A stretch of 37,902 nt of DNA, taken from positions 1-37,902 of the forward strand of contig NZ_AUWR01000031.1 in NCBI RefSeq assembly GCF_000455125.1, written 5' to 3'. Position numbers and translations under genes: made by a program. Below are positions 5,276-14,769 of the stretch, piece after piece. The stretch is from Mycobacterium sp. UM_WGJ. Its GTDB lineage: Bacteria > Actinomycetota > Actinomycetes > Mycobacteriales > Mycobacteriaceae. The notes below the pieces were generated by a model. That model worked only from the letters and a program-made list of their open reading frames with translations. It did not search any database and was not told the DNA's origin. Positions within the stretch are counted from its first letter, which is position 1. Each line of letters starts with the position of its first letter.

Positions 5276-5527
5276 TCAGCGGTAGGCGTCGCTGCGTTTG
5301 GCGACGGCGAAGATCGTGATGATGGCTGCGGCATCGTCGATCTGGTAGACGATCCGATACTGCCCGAACCGTACCCGCCAGTCATTGTGGCCACCGACCA
5401 GCTTTTTCGCCCCGGTCGGGCGCGGGCTAGCGGTGAGCCCGATAATCGTCTGCAGCGCCGTCTCGAACGCATCACGCGGCAGCCGCTGCAACTGCTTGAG
5501 GACGTCCGGGTGAAAGGCGACTTTCAC
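5276..5527 (-). CDS. RelE/ParE-superfamily toxin
   Basis: An 83-residue basic protein of the RelE/ParE fold. RelE members cut mRNA in the ribosomal A site and ParE members attack gyrase; the features here favour a RelE-like RNase. Visible features are KQLQRLPRD near residues 11-19, KKLVGGHNDWRVRFGQYRIVYQI at 41-63 with R51, R53 and R58, and the tail AKRSDAYR with K77, R78 and Y82. These are the positions at which family members keep basic and aromatic catalytic residues, so the toxin looks intact. The GTG start (5525-5527) overlaps the antitoxin stop (GTGA), giving antitoxin-first translational coupling. Confidence 0.85.
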   Translation of the reverse strand: MKVAFHPDVLKQLQRLPRDAFETALQTIIGLTASPRPTGAKKLVGGHNDWRVRFGQYRIVYQIDDAAAIITIFAVAKRSDAYR

Positions 5528-5805
5528 GACGCGACAAACGCCGCAGCGTTGACGCCCAGGGCATCGAGCATTTCACTCAGTGACATGGTGTTAAACGCAT
5601 TCGCGCGCATGTTCTGCACGCGTAGCGCGTCTGCGACGTCGGCGTGTTCATGCAGACGCTCGTAGTCTGCCATCGAGATGATCACCGCGATCTCGGTTCC
5701 GCTATCGGTGATGATGGCCTCTTCGCCGGAGGTAGCGACGTCGCGCACGATGGCACCGAGCTGGGCCCGCAAATCGCGAAGGCTATGCGTACTCATGTTA
5801 AACAT
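5524..5805 (-). CDS. Phd/YefM-type antitoxin of the RelE-like module
   Basis: A 93-residue antitoxin if the ATG at 5803-5805 is used, or 90 residues from the ATG at 5794-5796 (MSTHSLRDLRAQLG). The N-terminal half has the Phd/YefM DNA-binding fold: LRDLRAQLGAIVRDV, then ITDSGTEIAVIISMADYERL. The C-terminal half (about 50-90) is a helical toxin-binding tail. These antitoxins neutralise the partner and repress their own operon. The open frame extends further upstream to 5913, but that part is not family-like and lies under the alcohol dehydrogenase start. The stop overlaps the toxin GTG by four bases. Confidence 0.85.
   Translation of the reverse strand: MFNMSTHSLRDLRAQLGAIVRDVATSGEEAIITDSGTEIAVIISMADYERLHEHADVADALRVQNMRANAFNTMSLSEMLDALGVNAAAFVAS
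5795..5805. promoter_or_regulatory. Short palindrome at the antitoxin start, possible operator
   Basis: ATGTTAAACAT is a 5-bp inverted repeat around a single base and lies exactly over the two candidate antitoxin start codons. Antitoxins of this fold usually bind such palindromes near their own promoter. Its small size keeps this tentative. Confidence 0.3.
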
Positions 5806-5879: not shown

Positions 5880-6998
5880 ATGACACCCATGAAAACAATT
5901 GCCGCCGTGGCACATGCGCCCAACCAACCTTTCGAGATCATGGAATTGGACCTCGACGGGCCGGGTCCGGGTGAGGTACTGATCAAGTTCACCGCTGCCG
6001 GTCTGTGCCATTCAGACCTGCATCTGGCTGACGGGGACTGGCCGGCCCGGTTCCCGATCGTCGGCGGGCACGAAGGCTCCGGGATCATCGAGGACGTCGG
6101 CCCCGGGGTTACCAAAGTCAAGCCCGGTGATCACGTGGTGTGCTGTTTCATCCCCAGCTGCGGGGCCTGCCGATACTGCTCGACCGGACGGCAGAACCTG
6201 TGCGACATGGGAGCCACCATCCTGGAGGGCTGCATGCCCGACGGCACGTTCCGGTTCCACTCGGGCGGAACCGATTACGGCGGCTTCTGCATGCTGGGCA
6301 CCTTCGCCGAGCGGGCGACCGTCTCGCAGCACTCGGTGGTCAAGGTCGACGACTGGCTGCCGCTGGAGACCGCGGTGCTGGTCGGCTGCGGGGTCCCCAC
6401 CGGCTGGGCGACGGCCAACTATGACGGCGGGGTGCGCGCCGGGGACACCGTGGTGGTCTACGGCATCGGCGGCGTCGGCATCAACGCCGTGCAGGGCGCC
6501 GCGCACGCCGGCGCCAAGTACGTGGTGGCCGTCGACCCGGTGGAGTTCAAACGCGAAACCGCCCTGAAGCTGGGTGCCACGCACGCCTTCCCCACCGCCG
6601 AGGAGGCGATGGCCAAGATTGCCGAGCTGACCTGGGGACAGATGGCCGACCAGGCGCTGATAACCGTCGGCGACCTGGACGAAGCCGTCACCACCGCGGC
6701 ATTCAACACCATCGGCAAGGGCGGCACCGTGGTGATCGCCGCGCTGGCGAAGCTGGAGAGCCTGGACGTACACGTCTCGGGTTCGCAGCTGGCGTTGTTC
6801 GGCAAGACCGTCAAGGGCACGCTGTTCGGCGGCGCCAACCCGCAGTACGACATCGTGCGGCTGCTGCGCCTCTATGACGCCGGTCAGCTCAAGCTCGACG
6901 AGCTGATCACCCGGCGTTACACCCTGGAGCAGGTCAACGAGGGCTACCAGGATCTGCGTGACGGCAAGAACATCCGCGGGGTGATCGTGCACCGCTGA
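5880..6998 (+). CDS. adhD: Zinc-dependent (AdhD-like) alcohol dehydrogenase
   Basis: A 372-residue medium-chain zinc alcohol dehydrogenase that oxidises alcohols with a nicotinamide cofactor; many mycobacterial members are of the NDMA-dependent type with tightly bound cofactor. Catalytic zinc ligands are C43 (GLCHSD), H64/E65 (GGHEG) and C170 (VGCGVPTG). The structural zinc is held by C94, C97, C100 and C108. The Rossmann motif GIGGVG lies at 195-200. Long stretches, including the region around ATILEGCMPDG and the C-terminal NIRGVIVH, agree with M. tuberculosis AdhD (Rv3086) as I remember it, more closely than with AdhB. The family start matches the second ATG at 5889, so the first three residues are doubtful. 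The gene is divergent from the antitoxin. The physiological alcohol is unknown. Confidence 0.9.
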   Translation: MTPMKTIAAVAHAPNQPFEIMELDLDGPGPGEVLIKFTAAGLCHSDLHLADGDWPARFPIVGGHEGSGIIEDVGPGVTKVKPGDHVVCCFIPSCGACRYCSTGRQNLCDMGATILEGCMPDGTFRFHSGGTDYGGFCMLGTFAERATVSQHSVVKVDDWLPLETAVLVGCGVPTGWATANYDGGVRAGDTVVVYGIGGVGINAVQGAAHAGAKYVVAVDPVEFKRETALKLGATHAFPTAEEAMAKIAELTWGQMADQALITVGDLDEAVTTAAFNTIGKGGTVVIAALAKLESLDVHVSGSQLALFGKTVKGTLFGGANPQYDIVRLLRLYDAGQLKLDELITRRYTLEQVNEGYQDLRDGKNIRGVIVHR

Positions 6999-7041
6999 AC
7001 CGGCGAGTGGCCGATGGGGCAGGTGACAGCGGTGAGCAGCT

Positions 7042-8388
7042 ATGCGTGGTATGCCTGAAGTCGTGTCCGACGGACTGTTCGACCTCAGCGGCGCCCCGGC
7101 GCCCGAACCGCACGGATCCGGTGCCACCTCCACTCCGTTGGCGGTGCGGATGCGTCCGGCGTCCCTCGACGAGGTGGTCGGCCAGGATCACCTGCTGGGG
7201 CAGGGCTCCCCGCTGCGTCGGCTGGTCGATGGCTCCGGGGCGGCCTCGGTCATCCTCTACGGTCCGCCCGGGACCGGAAAGACCACGCTGGCCTCACTGA
7301 TCTCCGGTGCCACCGGACGACGATTCGAGGCGCTCTCAGCCCTGAGCGCCGGGGTCAAGGAAGTGCGCGCCGTGATCGACACCGCCCGACGCGCGGCCGC
7401 GTACGGCGAACAGACCGTGCTGTTCATCGATGAGGTGCACCGGTTCTCCAAAACCCAGCAGGATGCATTGCTGGCCGCGGTGGAGAACCGGGTGGTGCTG
7501 TTGGTGGCCGCAACCACCGAGAACCCGTCGTTCTCGGTGGTCGCCCCGCTGCTGAGCCGGTCGCTGATCCTGCAGCTGCGGCCACTGGAGCCCGAGGACA
7601 TCGCGGCGGTGCTGCGGCGCGCCATCGACGACGAGCGCGGCCTGGGCGGACGCATCGAGGTGGCGCCCGACGCCGTCGACCTGCTGGTTCGGCTGGCCGC
7701 CGGCGATGCCCGCCGGGCCTTGACCGCACTGGAAGTGGCGGCTGAGGCGGGCCGACGGGTGACCGTGGAGATCGTCGAGGGATCCCTGGACCAGGCCGCG
7801 GTGCGCTACGACCGCGATGGTGATCAGCACTACGACGTGATCAGTGCGTTCATCAAGTCGGTGCGCGGCTCCGACGTCGACGCCGCGCTGCACTACCTGG
7901 CCCGGATGCTGGTGGCAGGGGAGGACCCACGGTTCATCGCCCGTCGGCTGATGATTCTGGCCAGCGAAGACATCGGGATGGGCGATCCGACCGCGCTGCA
8001 GACCGCGGTGGCCGCGGCGCAGACCGTCGCGCTGATCGGCATGCCCGAGGCGCAATTGACCCTGGCGCACGCCACCGTGCATCTGGCAACAGCGCCGAAG
8101 TCCAACGCGGTGACCGCCGCGCTGGGCGCGGCCATGGCCGACATCCGGGCCGGCAAGGCCGGGGCGGTTCCGGCGCACCTGCGCGACGGGCACTATGCGG
8201 GAGCGCAGTCCCTGGGCAATGCGGTCGGTTACCGGTACGCCCACGACCATCCAGACGGCGTTGTGCCGCAACAATATCCACCCGATGAGCTGGTCGGGGT
8301 GGACTACTACCAACCCACCGGCCGGGGTGCGGAACGCGAGATCGGCGGGCGGTTGGCACGACTCAGGGCCATCATCCGGCGCCGCTAG
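7042..8388 (+). CDS. rarA: Replication-associated recombination protein A (RarA/MgsA AAA+ ATPase)
   Basis: A 448-residue clamp-loader-like AAA+ ATPase, the orthologue of Rv2559c. RarA acts at stalled replication forks and single-stranded DNA junctions. The Walker A motif GPPGTGKT is at 74-81, Walker B VLFIDE at 126-131 and sensor-1 TTEN at 159-161. The C-terminal half holds the MgsA tetramerisation domain ([20 protein letters not shown], then [10 protein letters not shown]). The length is normal. The ATG at 7042 has no clear ribosome-binding site; the ATG at 7051 (MPEVVSDG) fits the family start better. It lies 43 bases after the alcohol dehydrogenase. A pseudogene on the other strand begins 20 bases past its stop. 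Confidence 0.95.
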
Positions 8389-8408
8389 CTCACCAGGCGT
8401 GCTTTTCG

Positions 8409-9008
8409 TCAGCCGGCCGAGCCGGCTTGGCCCAGCCAATCGGCCAGCGAGCGCCCGGCGTCGAGGACGTGTTGCTCGGCGATGGCGCGCGATGCCTCCG
8501 CGTCGCCAGTGGCCAGCGCCGTGACCAGCTTGCGGTGGTCTTCCAGTGAATGGTGCTCGTGCTCGGGAAACACCGTCAGGAAGTTCGTCGGTACCACCCG
8601 CGCCGCATGCCGGATCTGGATGAGCAGCTGCGGCGAATGCGCGGCCCGGTGAATCTCCTGGTGAAACTCCCAGTTGGCGTCGCCGATGGCGTCCGAGCCG
8701 CGTAGGGCCTCGACGTCGGCGACCAGCGTCCGCAGGCGCTCGACTTCGGTGGGGGAGATCCGCTCGGCGGCCCAGGCGGCGGCCTGCCCGGTCAGCACGC
8801 CCAGGATGGTGAAACTGTCCAGCACATCCTCGGGGCGAATCCCGATCACGGTGACGCCGCTGCGCGGTGCGACCTCCACCAGGCCTTCGTAGGACAACTC
8901 CAGCAGGGCCTCGCGCACCGGTGTGCGGCTGGTGGCGAACTCGGTGGTGATGGCGTCGAGGTCGAGGCGGGTTCCGGGCGCCAGTTCACCGGTGATGCTC
9001 TCGGAGCT
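8409..9008 (-). pseudogene. GntR-family (FCD) regulator, 5'-truncated
   Basis: The frame encodes the C-terminal part of a GntR/FadR-type repressor. The end of the winged helix (ITGELAPGTRLDLDAITTE, then FATSRTPVREALLELSYEGLV) is followed by an FCD ligand-binding domain with the metal-site pattern NWEFHQEIHRAAHS and a later EDHRKLVTAL. The opening of the HTH domain is missing. In this frame similarity runs up to ESITGELAPG near 9000, and a TAG stop follows at 9015-9017. No usable start exists above the GTG at 8918, which would remove the first helices of the DNA-binding domain. From about 9001 rightward the sequence belongs to a truncated monooxygenase on the other strand. The gene is therefore probably a remnant, although a truncated FCD protein might still be made. 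Confidence 0.75.
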
Positions 9009-9414
9009 GATGAACTACGACTTCGCCCAGCACAACCTCGACGACCCGATCACCGACGAGTTGATCGCCTCGGTGTCGGGAATCCGCGGCCTGGTGCAGA
9101 ACCTGCGCACTCACATCGGCGGTGACATCACACTGCGCGACCTGGCCGGGCATCGGGCCACGCTGCTACAGGGACCACGCTTTGTCGGCACCGGAGCCCA
9201 AGTCGCCGACCAGATGGAGGAGTGGTTCCACGGCGGCGCCTGCGACGGATTCGTCTTGGCCGCAACGCATTCACCGGGCTCCTATGAGGATGTGGTGCGG
9301 ATGGTCGTCCCGGAGCTGCAGCGCCGCGGACTGTTCCGCACCCACTACGAAGGCAACACCCTGCGTGAGCACCTGGGCCTGCCCCGGCCCGCCGCGGCCG
9401 CCGTACCGGCATGA
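9001..9414 (+). pseudogene. C-terminal remnant of an NtaA/SnaA/DszA-type flavin monooxygenase
   Basis: About 137 codons encode the C-terminal third of a luciferase-like monooxygenase of the nitrilotriacetate/dibenzothiophene-sulfone type. Recognisable parts are GPRFVGTGAQVADQMEEWF, GACDGFVLAATHSPGSYEDV and VVPELQRRGLFRTHYEGNTLRE, the standard ending of this family. A full member has about 440 residues, so roughly 300 are missing along with the flavin-binding barrel start. Upstream of about 9001 the same frame runs into the antisense of the GntR gene. The in-frame GTG at 8923 and ATG at 8995 would only make a chimera. The stop overlaps the CoA-transferase start (ATGA), which shows that the two were once one operon. 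Confidence 0.8.
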
Positions 9415-10607
9415 CAGGCGCGATGCTGGCCGGCATCCGGGTGCTCGACCTGGCCACCTTGGCAGCGGCGCCGCTGGTGGCCACCTATCTCGGCGAGTTC
9501 GGTGCCGACGTCATCAAGGTCGAGCAACCCGGCTCCGGGGACCCGATCCGCGGCTGGGGCAATCAGCGCGACGGCGTCGGGCTGATGTGGAAGTCGGTGT
9601 CGCGCAACAAGCGCTCGATCACCTGCAACCTACGACTGCCCGAAGGCCAGGATCTGGTGCGCAAGCTGGTGGCCCACTCCGATGTGGTGATCGCCAACAC
9701 CCGTCCACAGACCCTGCGCGCGTGGGGGTTGGACTACGAGGCGTTGCGGGCGGTCAACGACCGCATCGTGATGCTGCACATCACCGGCTTCGGGCTCTCC
9801 GGTCCCAGGAGTGAGAGGCCGGGCTTCGGCACGCTCGGTGAGGCGATGAGCGGCTTTGCCAACATCACCGGTGAAACCGACGGCCCACCCACGCTGCCGC
9901 CGTTCATGCTGGCCGACGGCGTCGCGTCGCTGAATGCCGCCTACGCGGTGATGATGGCGCTGTATCACCGCGACATGCACGGCGCGTCGGGTCAGCTGAT
10001 CGACGTCAACCTCATTGACCCGCTGGCTCGCCTGCTCGAGCAGACCCTGCTCGGCTACGACCAACTCGGTCTGGTGCCGACCAGAGCCGGCAACCGCTGG
10101 GACATCTCGGCGCCGCGCAACACCTACCGCACCGCCGACGGCCGCTGGCTGGCCATGTCGGGCAGTTCACCGGCGTTGGCACTGCGGGTGTTTCGGGCGA
10201 TCGGGCGCGCCGACCTGGTGGACGACGCCGACTTCAGCGACCCGCAGCGCCGGCTGGCCCGCGCCCGCGAAGTCGATCAGGTGGTCGCCGACTGGGTGGC
10301 CACCAAGACCCTGGATGAAGCCATGGCGGTGTTCGACGCCAAACAGGTCGCGGCCGCAGCGGTATATGACATCACCGACCTGGTCGCCGACGAGCAGCTG
10401 GCGCATCGCGAAGTCTTCGTCAAGGTCGACGACGACGAACTCGGCGCCATGACCGTCCAGGCCCCGGTGCCGCGCTTCTCCGACGCGACCGGGCGCGTCG
10501 AACACCTGGGCCCTCGCCTGGGGGAGCACAACACCGAGGTCTACCGCGAACTGCTCGACCTCACCTCATCCGACATCGACGACCTGCACGCCCGCGGCGT
10601 GTTGTGA
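9411..10607 (+). CDS. Class III (CaiB/BaiF) CoA-transferase
   Basis: A 398-residue family III CoA-transferase, which moves CoA between organic acids through enzyme-bound aspartyl-CoA intermediates. The N-terminal AGIRVLDLATLAAAP segment and GADVIKVEQPGSGDPIR are typical. The catalytic Asp is D169 (FMLADGVAS), the same number as in formyl-CoA transferase. The length is normal. The ATG overlaps the stop of the truncated monooxygenase by four bases, and a malyl-CoA-lyase-like gene follows 28 bases later. In the 3-hydroxypropionate bicycle of Chloroflexus a class III CoA-transferase and a malyl-CoA lyase act on C4-C5 dicarboxylic acids, so a similar pairing is possible here. The actual substrates are unknown. 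Confidence 0.88.
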   Translation: MTGAMLAGIRVLDLATLAAAPLVATYLGEFGADVIKVEQPGSGDPIRGWGNQRDGVGLMWKSVSRNKRSITCNLRLPEGQDLVRKLVAHSDVVIANTRPQTLRAWGLDYEALRAVNDRIVMLHITGFGLSGPRSERPGFGTLGEAMSGFANITGETDGPPTLPPFMLADGVASLNAAYAVMMALYHRDMHGASGQLIDVNLIDPLARLLEQTLLGYDQLGLVPTRAGNRWDISAPRNTYRTADGRWLAMSGSSPALALRVFRAIGRADLVDDADFSDPQRRLARAREVDQVVADWVATKTLDEAMAVFDAKQVAAAAVYDITDLVADEQLAHREVFVKVDDDELGAMTVQAPVPRFSDATGRVEHLGPRLGEHNTEVYRELLDLTSSDIDDLHARGVL

Positions 10608-10619
10608 CCCCCGAACCTC

Positions 10620-10627
10620 AAGGAGAG
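10620..10627 (+). promoter_or_regulatory. Shine-Dalgarno site of the lyase gene
   Basis: AAGGAGAG sits about 8 bases before the ATG at 10636. It is one of the strongest ribosome-binding sites in the window and fixes this start. Confidence 0.7.
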
Positions 10628-10635
10628 ATCGCCCC

Positions 10636-11541
10636 ATGCTGTTGCGCCGTTCCGAGTTGGCCGTGCCCGCTGCCAACCACAACATGTTCGCCAAGGCGGC
10701 CGCCTCGCAGGCAGACCTGGTCTTCCTCGACCTGGAGGATGCGACCGCGCCCGCCGAGAAAGTCGGCGCCCGCGCCAAGGTGATCACCGCGCTGAACGAC
10801 CTGGACTGGGGACGCACCGCGCGCGCCATCCGGATCAACGGTCTAGATACGCAGTGGTGCCACGATGACATCATCGAGGTGGTCACCGCCGCCGGCCACA
10901 ACCTGGACACCATCGTCGTCCCCAAAGCCTGCACCGCCCGCGACGTCTGGTGGGTCGACCTGCTGCTCACCCAGCTGGAGGCCAAACTCGGCCTGGAACA
11001 CCAGATCCGCCTCGAGGTGCTCATCGAGGAGGTCGAGGGGCTGGCCAACGCCGAGGAGATCGCCAAGGCCAGTCCGCGGATCGACGCGCTGATCTTCGGA
11101 GTCGGCGACTTCTCGCTGTCGCAGGGCGCGCGGGTGGACACCAACTTCGTACCGATCTGGGACTACCCGGGCGACTTCTGGCACTACGCCCGCAACAAGG
11201 TGGTTGTCGCGGCCCGCATCGCCGGCATCGAGGCCATCGACTCGCCCTACCCCGACTACGCAAACCGCGACGGCTACGAATCCGAGGCCCGCCGGTCCTC
11301 GCTGTACGGCTTCACTGGCAAGTGGGCGATTCACCCCACCCAGATCCCGGTCGCCAACGCGGTGTTCTCGCCGACCGCCCAGGAGATCGCGCTGGCTGAA
11401 CGCAACATGGCCGCCTACCGCGAGGGTGAGGCGAAGGGGCTGGGCGCGGTCGGGGTCGACGGCGTGCTGGTTGACGCCGCGCACGTCAAGATGGCGCAGA
11501 ACACCCTGGCGCGGGTAGCCCTGATAAACGGGGAGCGCTGA
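10636..11541 (+). CDS. Malyl-CoA/methylmalyl-CoA lyase-like protein (HpcH/HpaI-CitE superfamily)
   Basis: A 301-residue TIM-barrel lyase that, in its family, cleaves or forms 3-hydroxyacyl-CoA thioesters such as malyl-CoA or citramalyl-CoA with Mg2+. RRSELAVPAANHNMFAKAA at 4-22, the acidic LDLEDA with E34 and D35, and RINGLDT with R66 match the substrate and metal sites. The C-terminal half (FGVGDFSLSQGAR, then GFTGKWAIHPTQI) follows L-malyl-CoA/beta-methylmalyl-CoA lyases closely, more so than the shorter CitE proteins. It is the last gene of a run with the CoA-transferase and the truncated monooxygenase. Cleavage would release acetyl-CoA or propionyl-CoA plus glyoxylate, or pyruvate for a citramalyl-CoA substrate. 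Which of these applies cannot be read from the sequence. Confidence 0.85.
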   Translation: MLLRRSELAVPAANHNMFAKAAASQADLVFLDLEDATAPAEKVGARAKVITALNDLDWGRTARAIRINGLDTQWCHDDIIEVVTAAGHNLDTIVVPKACTARDVWWVDLLLTQLEAKLGLEHQIRLEVLIEEVEGLANAEEIAKASPRIDALIFGVGDFSLSQGARVDTNFVPIWDYPGDFWHYARNKVVVAARIAGIEAIDSPYPDYANRDGYESEARRSSLYGFTGKWAIHPTQIPVANAVFSPTAQEIALAERNMAAYREGEAKGLGAVGVDGVLVDAAHVKMAQNTLARVALINGER

Positions 11542-11580
11542 CTCCGCCCGAGAGTGGCGGCGGCCCCTACCCTGGAGCTG

Positions 11581-11991
11581 GTGAACACCGAAGTGCTCGA
11601 CATCGACACCTCGCGGCGTCGCACCGTCGACCTCACCGATGAGGTGCGGTCGTTCTGTGCCCGCCACGGTGACGGGCTGTGCAACGTCTTCGTGCCGCAT
11701 GCGACGGCCGGGGTGGCGATCATCGAGACCGGCGCCGGCTCGGACTCCGACCTGGTCGACACGCTCGAGCGGCTCTTGCCGCGCGATGACCGCTACCGGC
11801 ACGCGCACGGCTCGCCCGGGCACGGCGCCGATCACGTGCTGCCGGCGATCGTGGCACCGTCGATCACGGTTCCGGTAGCCGGCGGTGAGCCGCTGCTGGG
11901 CATCTGGCAGTCGGTGGTGCTGGTCGACCTGAACCGCGACAACCCTCGTCGAAGTGTGCGGTTGAGCTTTGTCGGCGCCGCCGCCACCTGA
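11581..11991 (+). CDS. YjbQ/UPF0047 family protein (Rv2556c-like)
   Basis: A 136-residue protein of the UPF0047/YjbQ family, some members of which show weak thiamine-phosphate synthase activity; the true role is unsettled. HATAGVAIIETGAG near residues 40-53 and the GHGADHVLPAIVAPS and PVAGGEPLLGIWQSVVLVDLN blocks are the family signature. The closest protein I recall is M. tuberculosis Rv2556c, which also precedes alaS. The GTG at 11581 (VNTEVLDIDT) has GGAG a few bases upstream and fits the Rv2556c start. The frame also stays open to a GTG at 11554, which would add nine residues. Its neighbour alaS begins 84 bases after its stop. Confidence 0.85.
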   Translation: MNTEVLDIDTSRRRTVDLTDEVRSFCARHGDGLCNVFVPHATAGVAIIETGAGSDSDLVDTLERLLPRDDRYRHAHGSPGHGADHVLPAIVAPSITVPVAGGEPLLGIWQSVVLVDLNRDNPRRSVRLSFVGAAAT

Positions 11992-12037
11992 GGATCCTTG
12001 CCTGCAGAGAACCCGATCGGCAGCCCGGTACTGTAGT

Positions 12038-12060
12038 GCCGTCTAAACGGATGAGACGGC
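12038..12060 (+). promoter_or_regulatory. Small hairpin in the alaS leader
   Basis: GCCGTCT (12038-12044) and AGACGGC (12054-12060) form a 7-bp stem with a 9-nt loop, directly before the GGGAAG ribosome-binding site of alaS. TACTGT at 12029-12034 could be the -10 element. No T-box features are present. A role in alaS control is speculative. Confidence 0.35.
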
Positions 12061-12075
12061 GGGAAGCGATAGATA

Positions 12076-14769
12076 GTGCAGACACACGAGATCAGGAAAC
12101 GCTTCCTCGATCACTTCGTGAAAGCGGGCCACACCGAGGTGCCCAGCGCTTCGGTGATCCTGGATGACCCCAACCTGTTGTTCATCAACGCCGGCATGGT
12201 GCAGTTCGTGCCGTTCTTCTTGGGTCAGCGCACCCCGCCGTACGCCACCGCCACCAGCATCCAGAAGTGCATCCGCACGCCGGATATCGACGAGGTGGGC
12301 ATCACCACCCGGCACAACACCTTCTTCCAGATGGCCGGCAACTTCTCGTTCGGCGACTACTTCAAGCGCGGTGCGATCGAGCTGGCCTGGACGCTGCTGA
12401 CGGGCAGCGTCGCCGACGGTGGTTACGGACTCGACCCCGAACGGCTGTGGGCCACCGTCTATCTCGACGACGACGAGGCCATCGCGTTGTGGCAGGAGAT
12501 CGCGGGACTGCCGCTTGAGCGGATCCAGCGCCGTGGCATGGCCGACAACTACTGGTCGATGGGCATCCCCGGGCCCTGCGGCCCGTCGTCGGAGATCTAC
12601 TACGACCGCGGCCCGGAGTTCGGTGTCGACGGCGGCCCGGTGGCCAACGAGGACCGCTACATCGAGATCTGGAACCTCGTTTTCATGCAGAACGAGCGCG
12701 GCGAGGGCACCTCCAAGGAGGACTTCGAGATCCTCGGGCCGCTGCCGCGCCAGAACATCGACACCGGCATGGGCATCGAGCGGGTCGCCTTCCTGCTGCA
12801 GGGCGTGCACAACGTGTACGAGACCGACCTGGTAAGGCCGGTCATCGATCTGGTGGCCACTCGCGCGCCGCGTGGCTACAACAGCGGCAATGACGCCGAC
12901 GACGTGCGATACCGGATCATCGCCGACCACTCCCGCACCGCGGCCATCCTGATCGGCGACGGCGTGAGCCCCGGCAACGACGGCCGCGGCTACGTGCTGC
13001 GCCGGTTGCTGCGCCGGGTGATCCGCTCGGCCAAACTGCTGGGCATCGAAGGCCCGATCGTCGGCGACCTGATGGCTACCGTGCGCGATGCCATGGGTCC
13101 GTCGTATCCGGAACTGGTCACCGACTTCGACCGGATCAGCCGGATCGCGGTTGCCGAGGAGACCGCGTTCAACCGCACCCTGACCTCGGGCTCGAAGCTG
13201 TTCGAGGACGCGGCGGCAGCCACCCGGTCTGCCGGGGTCACCGTGCTCTCCGGCAGCGACGCCTTCGCCCTGCACGACACCTACGGATTCCCGATCGAAC
13301 TCACGCTGGAGATGGCCTCGGAGGCCGGCCTGCAGGTCGACGAGGCCGGGTTCCGCACGCTGATGGCCGAGCAGCGGCAGCGGGCCAAGGCCGACGCCGC
13401 CGCGCGCAAGCACGCCCACGCCGACCTGAGCGCCTACCGGGAGCTGATCGACGCCGGACCCACCGAGTTCACCGGGTTCGACGAGCTCACCACCGAAGGC
13501 CGCATCCTGGGCATCTTCGTCGACGGCAAGCGGGTGCCGGTGGTATCGCACGAGGACCAGAAGGGCATGGCCGCCGATCGCATCGAGCTGGTGTTGGACC
13601 GCACCCCGCTCTACGCCGAGGCCGGCGGACAGATCGCCGACGCCGGCACCATCAGTGCCGGGGCTGCCCAGGCGACGGTCACCGACGTGCAGAAGATCGC
13701 CCAGACACTGTTCGTGCACCGGGTCAACGTCGAGTCCGGCGAATTCGTCGAGGGTGACACGGTCACTGCAGCGGTGGACCAGGGCTGGCGCAAGGGGGCC
13801 ACCCAGGGCCACTCGGGCACCCACATGGTGCACGCCGCGCTGCGGCAGGTGTTGGGGCCCAATGCGGTTCAGGCCGGCTCGCTGAACCGGCCCGGTTATC
13901 TGCGGTTCGACTTCAACTGGCAGGGCGCGCTCAGCGATGAGCAACGCCGCCAAGTTGAGGAGGTCACCAACGAGGCGGTGCAGGCCGACTTCGAGGTACA
14001 CACCTTCACCGAAGAACTCGAGAAGGCCAAGGCCATGGGCGCCATGGCGATGTTCGGCGAGAAGTACCCCGAGAAGGTGCGCGTCGTCGAGATCGGCGGG
14101 CCGTTCTCGCTGGAACTGTGTGGCGGCACCCACGTGCATAACTCGGCGCAGATCGGTCCGGTGACCATCCTGGGAGAGTCGTCGGTCGGCTCCGGTGTGC
14201 GCCGTGTCGAGGCCTATGTCGGGCTGGACTCGTTCCGGCATCTGGCCAAGGAGCGGGCGCTGATGGCGGGGCTGGCCTCGTCGTTGAAGGTGCCCTCCGA
14301 GGAAGTGCCGGCCCGGGTGGCCAACCTGGTCGAGCGACTCAAGGCCGCCGAGAAGGAACTGGACCGCGCCCGGCTGGCCAGTGCCCGAGCGGCCGCGGTG
14401 AACGCCGCCGCCGGCGCCGAACAAATCGGTAACGTGCGCTTGGTGGCGCAGCGGATGTCGGGCGGAATCGGCGCAGGCGACCTGCGTTCGCTGGTCGGCG
14501 ACATCCGCGGCAAGCTGGGGGAGACGCCCGCGGTGGTGGCTCTCATCGCCGATGGTGACGACAGCGTTCCCTACGTGGTGGCCGCCAACGCCGGCGCGCA
14601 AGAGCTCGGGTTGCGCGCCGACGACCTGGTCAAGGAGTTGGCGGCGGCGGTGTCCGGCCGCGGCGGCGGCAAGGCCGATCTGGCGCAGGGCTCCGGTAAG
14701 GACCCCGCCGGGATCGAGGCCGCGCTCGCGGCGATCCGCGCGTCGGTCGCCCGGAGCGCGCCGGCGTGA
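12076..14769 (+). CDS. alaS: Alanine--tRNA ligase (AlaRS)
   Basis: An 897-residue class II synthetase that charges tRNA-Ala and edits Ser/Gly mischarges. The catalytic domain covers about 1-450, with [12 protein letters not shown] and [19 protein letters not shown]. The editing domain carries the zinc ligands H579 and H583 (HSGTH) and C682 and H686 (CGGTH), followed by the DHHA1-type C-terminal domain ([26 protein letters not shown]). Its length is close to the 904 residues of M. tuberculosis AlaRS. The GTG start ([10 protein letters not shown]) matches the family and is preceded by GGGAAG. It is first in a tight unit, because its stop overlaps the ruvX GTG by four bases. Confidence 0.97.

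What the first reader, a model, noticed from the sequence alone, without database searches (positions are those of the whole stretch)
8409..9414. Deletion scar that removed the 5' halves of two divergent genes
Seen directly: the leftward frame reads as a GntR-FCD regulator up to ITGELAPG near 9000, then meets a TAG stop at 9015-9017. From about 9001 the rightward frame reads as the last third of an NtaA/SnaA/DszA monooxygenase, which is fused upstream to antisense GntR sequence. A single deletion across a divergent promoter region explains both truncations. The monooxygenase stop still overlaps the CoA-transferase start (ATGA), so the downstream genes have lost their own promoter and regulator.
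Basis: partly seen in the sequence, partly recalled or inferred. Interest (0 to 1): 0.7.

Follow-up and report, generated by a model that had tools for sequence, protein, structure and literature searches.

The report
Recent deletion in a metabolic cluster
A single recent deletion of about 1,080 bases in this mycobacterium removed the shared control region of two back-to-back genes, the start of a regulator and most of an enzyme; it is a clear but ordinary gene-loss event.

Summary
Against relatives, window 8995|8996 is a clean breakpoint. All 33 whole-genome loci and all 67 named loci in which both flanks were found carry extra DNA there (1,075-1,080 bp in the nearest relatives); 0 of 125 loci run across unbroken. 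The missing segment occurs nowhere else in this genome, while 5 of 5 relatives have it. One correction: the losses are not "halves". gntR lost about 35 of 229 codons, including its start and first helix; the NtaA/DszA-type monooxygenase lost about 325 of 463. The intergenic region went too, with a 16-bp palindrome found within 2 mismatches in 64 of 70 named divergent gntR/monooxygenase loci, probably the operator. The remnants still show a functional-gene substitution pattern (2 nonsynonymous, 9 synonymous private changes; P = 2e-4 if neutral), so the deletion is young, perhaps strain-specific or from culture. The downstream CoA-transferase and lyase genes are intact but have lost regulator, operator and promoter region; their expression is untested. 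No direct repeat or evident microhomology marks the join, so end joining is plausible (a Ku gene is present). Real, but ordinary.

The parts
7042..8388 (+). rarA/mgsA-type AAA+ ATPase gene, intact; upstream neighbour and possible source of read-through transcription
   Evidence: Pfam MgsA_C and AAA; rarA also precedes the cluster in 6 of 7 named Mycolicibacter loci
8409..8995 (-). gntR (FCD) remnant: about 195 of 229 codons, start codon and N-terminal helix lost; the only ATG/GTG/TTG-initiated ORF of 80 aa or more left in this frame is 8409-8918, which lacks most of the wHTH
8995..8996 (.). deletion junction (1,075-1,080 bp missing relative to the nearest relatives); creates an in-frame ATG at 8995-8997
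8996..9414 (+). C-terminal remnant of an NtaA/DszA-family FMN monooxygenase (last 138 of 463 codons)
   Evidence: TIGR03860 positions 301-422 only; protein match 321-463 of 463, the first few residues by chance; residue 326 starts the true match
8923..9414 (+). chimeric open frame: antisense gntR run into the monooxygenase tail; not likely a real protein
   Evidence: no Pfam match at E 0.001
9411..10607 (+). family III CoA-transferase, intact; start overlaps the monooxygenase stop (ATGA)
   Evidence: Pfam CoA_transf_3, 367.8 bits; dN/dS 0.09-0.13 against six relatives
10636..11541 (+). HpcH/HpaI (CitE / malyl-CoA-lyase-like) C-C lyase, intact
   Evidence: Pfam PF03328; best solved relative is a malyl-CoA/beta-methylmalyl-CoA lyase

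Best explanation
A conserved, probably catabolic cluster (gntR divergent from monooxygenase, CoA-transferase III, CitE-like lyase) suffered one deletion of about 1.08 kb without extensive homology, recently in the history of this lineage. It removed the first ~35 codons of gntR, the intergenic promoter/operator region including a 16-bp palindrome, and the first ~325 codons of the monooxygenase. Shown: breakpoint, size, uniqueness among the loci examined, absence of the segment elsewhere in the genome, and a functional-gene-like substitution pattern in the remnants. Inferred: joining by end joining; palindrome as the GntR operator; the pathway dead for want of its monooxygenase; CoA-transferase and lyase now silent, or served only by read-through from rarA or a fortuitous promoter.
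For: Both flanks match relatives, with 1,075-1,080 bp extra between them in those at least 83% identical on both sides. Of loci with both flanks found, 33 of 33 whole-genome loci and 63 of 67 named loci have 1,030-1,090 bp extra, the other 4 (Nocardia, Gordonia) 1,176-1,276; 0 of 125 loci are unsplit. The deleted segment is absent from G000 and present in 5 of 5 relatives, one of them the source of the query. The only close monooxygenase match in G000 is this remnant; the other 6 matches are 31-38% identical over part of the length. The palindrome has no match at 2 mismatches in G000 and lies at this locus in 5 of 5 relatives; it is within 2 mismatches in 64 of 70 named divergent loci, against best matches of 6-10 mismatches in control stretches. 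Remnant private changes 2 N, 9 S. No direct repeat of 12 bp or more; a Ku gene is present.
Against: No reads, so the junction rests on one draft assembly (116 contigs). One genome per species is held, so fixation is untested. No expression data. 13 of 80 named and 12 of 45 whole-genome loci lacked one or both flank matches and say nothing on size. In one search the control pattern (read backwards) also had one match in 3 of 6 genomes, so one match per genome is not in itself beyond chance; the position and conservation are the evidence. 10 of 80 named loci have no divergent gntR beside the monooxygenase, so the regulator is not universal.
Confidence: 0.9

Rival explanations
1. Assembly error: the 1.08 kb was dropped by the assembler.
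For: Draft assembly of 116 contigs; the arrangement is seen in this genome alone among those examined; the remnants look fresh.
Against: No direct repeat of 12 bp or more in 8600-9400 and no evident microhomology to the relatives' flanks, so there is no repeat to collapse on; the missing segment is on no other contig; no N in the sequence read, 8000-10000.
Confidence: 0.05
2. Rewiring rather than decay: the deletion put the CoA-transferase and lyase under rarA read-through, free of the regulator, and the truncated frames are tolerated or useful. The junction makes an in-frame ATG (8995-8997), so translation of the tail could still couple to the CoA-transferase start.
For: Same strand as rarA; no terminator-like site found in 8200-10700, though shuffles give only 0.6; in-frame ATG at the junction; downstream genes intact with dN/dS 0.05-0.14.
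Against: The downstream pattern is equally explained by youth of the deletion; 79 of 80 named loci that hold the CoA-transferase also hold a full-length monooxygenase, so the pair without it is probably of little use; the terminator scan is a crude consensus.
Confidence: 0.05

Closest known systems
Intact gntR / NtaA-DszA-type monooxygenase / CoA-transferase III / CitE-like lyase cluster of Mycolicibacter, Mycobacterium and Nocardia
   Same: Same genes, order and strand; in 6 of 7 named Mycolicibacter loci also the same rarA and UPF0047-alaS neighbours (M. engbaekii, L126, is the exception)
   Different: The window lacks ~1.08 kb: gntR start, intergenic region, first two thirds of the monooxygenase
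Damaged cluster in Mycobacterium lepraemurium (L095)
   Same: Monooxygenase and lyase of this cluster match only in part
   Different: There the monooxygenase 5' part and gntR are present; damage lies elsewhere, so it looks like an independent loss

Membership tests
Single-event deletion pseudogene pair | Both flanks collinear with relatives, with one block missing | tested here: met
Single-event deletion pseudogene pair | Missing block not present elsewhere in the genome | tested here: met
   (5 positive-control genomes)
Single-event deletion pseudogene pair | Junction present in the organism's DNA (reads or PCR) | not testable with these tools
   no reads held
NtaA/DmoA (TIGR03860) monooxygenase | Score above the curated cut-off over the whole profile | tested here: not met
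   window remnant 116.8 bits against a cut-off of 279.7, positions 301-422 only; intact relative 513.2 bits
GntR/FCD regulator | Complete wHTH (PF00392) with start codon plus FCD (PF07729) | tested here: not met
   FCD met; the ORF 8409-8918 has no PF00392 match; intact relative has both
Nonhomologous end joining product | Join without homology, in a cell with Ku and LigD | tested here: inconclusive
   no direct repeat, no evident microhomology by eye, Ku present; LigD not tested, and an imperfect inverted pair brackets the junction

The most novel reading that the evidence does not exclude
The deletion is a regulatory rewiring: it removed a regulator's start and its operator together and placed an intact CoA-transferase/lyase pair under read-through from the DNA-repair gene rarA, giving constitutive expression uncoupled from the monooxygenase.
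Probability: 0.05. Interest if true: 0.35.

Novelty: new member of a known kind. Interest (0 to 1): 0.17.

Why it matters
It is a young, clean loss-of-function event: a caution for annotation (the chimeric ORF 8923-9414 and the headless regulator should be called pseudogenes) and a natural knock-out of a cluster whose substrate is unknown. By-product: comparing relatives exposes a strongly conserved palindrome that is a testable candidate operator for this GntR family in mycobacteria and some Nocardia.

Tried and rejected
Looked for the deleted segment elsewhere in the genome (translocation): none. Looked for a replacement monooxygenase: none close. Looked for sigma-70-type promoters and terminators in 8200-10700: 0 of either, against shuffle means of 0.2 and 0.6, so the scan is uninformative. 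Looked for repeats that could have mediated the deletion: no direct repeats of 12 bp or more in 8600-9400; three inverted pairs, one of which (arms 8941-8971 and 9026-9056, 71% complementary) brackets the junction. I did not test whether that is more than chance in such GC-rich DNA. The alternative that relatives gained an insertion is rejected: the extra segment is the 5' part of two intact genes in species as far away as Nocardia. Papers: three searches answered, search listings only seen, no paper opened. FMN-dependent monooxygenase, CoA-transferase, CitE, GntR, mycobacteri, at least 4 of 5: 0 papers. Mycolicibacter, pseudogene, deletion, genome, at least 3 of 4: 16,502 papers, 12 listed, none of those evidently on this locus. 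Mycobacterial end joining: 26 papers, 8 listed. In one search the L127 row was given on the wrong strand; I ignore that row (L127 was checked by tblastn and its genome's palindrome).

Full report
What is there. In the window, a leftward GntR-FCD frame and a rightward monooxygenase frame meet with their 5' ends cut off. Pfam and NCBIfam agree with the names: FCD for the left remnant, TIGR03860 (NtaA/DmoA) positions 301-422 only for the right remnant. Downstream are an intact CoA-transferase III, an HpcH/HpaI lyase and a UPF0047 protein, then alaS (name from recall of the sequence; 88-97% identical to its counterpart in six relatives). Upstream is rarA.

Organism. The genome itself is unnamed. 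The nearest named loci are Mycolicibacter heraklionensis, algericus, senuensis and longobardus, with Mycobacterium talmoniae (91-95% CoA-transferase identity), i.e. near the Mycobacterium terrae complex (this last name from recall).

The deletion. The query 8380-9480 matches relatives as two blocks that meet at window 8995|8996. In a search of 396 genomes of the genus, 86 had a match at E <= 1e-60; the window's genome has a single unbroken match, the 85 others two each, but at most two candidates per genome were scored, and I checked adjacency only in loci held. One of the 85, G363, has its two matches at different places: its locus after rarA has the monooxygenase but no gntR, and its other match is a gntR-like gene elsewhere. 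In the loci held, 33 of 45 from whole genomes and 67 of 80 named ones have both flank matches. All 33, and 63 of the 67, carry 1,030-1,090 bp extra; the other 4 are Nocardia and Gordonia with 1,176-1,276. None of the 125 spans the point unbroken. Of the 12 whole-genome loci without both flanks, one is G363 and the other 11 look like matches to paralogs (inferred from their weak, partial matches). In relatives at least 83% identical on both sides the extra is 1,075-1,080 bp. The lost block is absent from the window's genome while the same search finds it in 5 of 5 relatives, one of them the source of the query.

What was lost. Relative to L047 (taking the TTG starts listed; true starts are not known), gntR keeps codons 36-229 and the monooxygenase codons 326-463. 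The remaining gntR frame has no ATG, GTG or TTG before 8918, which cuts the recognition region. The intergenic region is gone too. In relatives it carries the palindrome ATCTGATATATCAGAT (the pattern was chosen from these same relatives). It is within 2 mismatches in 64 of 70 named loci with gntR divergent from the monooxygenase, with best matches of 6-10 mismatches in equal-length control stretches inside the monooxygenase. The six others are five loci of Nocardia, Williamsia and Gordonia with gntR 51% identical or less (5-6 mismatches) and one Williamsia at 3 mismatches; the remaining 10 of the 80 have no divergent gntR beside the monooxygenase (identities). At up to 2 mismatches it occurs at one place, this locus, in each of five relatives' genomes and not at all in the window's genome; the control pattern, read backwards, also had one place in 3 of the 6 genomes, so it is the position and conservation, not the count, that speak. 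I infer that it is the regulator's operator.

Age. Between window and six relatives, remnants and intact genes have similar dN/dS: gntR 0.07-0.11, monooxygenase 0.01-0.16, CoA-transferase 0.09-0.13, lyase 0.05-0.14. Changes private to the window are 2 N and 4 S in gntR, 0 N and 5 S in the monooxygenase, 5 N and 11 S in the CoA-transferase, 3 N and 11 S in the lyase. If the 329 remnant codons had been neutral throughout, at most 2 N of 11 would have P = 2.3e-4. A rough one-sided 95% bound, assuming dN/dS 0.10 before the event, puts the deletion in the last quarter of the private branch (counts are small and the model simple). It may be confined to this strain or have arisen in culture. Nothing here distinguishes these.

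How it arose. No direct repeat of 12 bp or more lies in 8600-9400; an imperfect inverted pair brackets the junction and was not tested against chance. Taking the closest relatives as stand-ins for the ancestor, the two broken ends share no base at the join (read by eye; a few bases could be hidden by divergence). A Ku gene is present, so end joining is plausible; LigD was not tested. The join creates an in-frame ATG at 8995-8997, so a 139-codon tail could be translated if transcribed.

Consequence. Of 80 named loci found with the CoA-transferase, 79 hold a full-length monooxygenase (the exception, M. lepraemurium L095, is itself damaged) and 78 a lyase match, L095's being partial. The genes evidently belong together. 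The closest solved relatives by sequence are DszA for the intact monooxygenase, a malyl-CoA/beta-methylmalyl-CoA lyase for the lyase, and succinate-hydroxymethylglutarate CoA-transferase and a CaiB/BaiF protein for the CoA-transferase. The likely pathway is oxygenation of a small substrate, CoA activation of a resulting acid and C-C cleavage; substrate unknown (inference). Without the monooxygenase the pathway should be dead in this strain. Expression of the remaining genes is untested.

Verdict. Real, well supported, ordinary.

Noticed in passing
L127 (G097:C1:1909000-1924000) against window 5880-14769: Synonymous divergence is 0.24-0.28 over gntR to lyase but 0.40-0.51 in the flanking rarA, UPF0047, alaS and alcohol dehydrogenase genes, as if the cluster had been exchanged by recombination between these lineages.
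   Followed up: partly
L095 (Mycobacterium lepraemurium): The same cluster is damaged there too: monooxygenase matched only to residue 398 of 463 with a stop inside the match, lyase matched only over 104-185 of 301.
   Followed up: no
L047-L126: rarA lies upstream of the cluster in 12 of 80 named loci (6 Mycolicibacter and L054, L065, L066, L075, L076, L110); in the others no rarA match lies in the stretch held (some stretches are short), so the cluster has moved or been transferred.
   Followed up: partly
5276-5790 (-): A type II toxin-antitoxin pair: ParE-family toxin and Phd/YefM antitoxin.
   Followed up: no
G363 (L130, L129): This genome has the monooxygenase, CoA-transferase and lyase after rarA but no gntR match there; a gntR-like gene lies elsewhere.
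   Followed up: no
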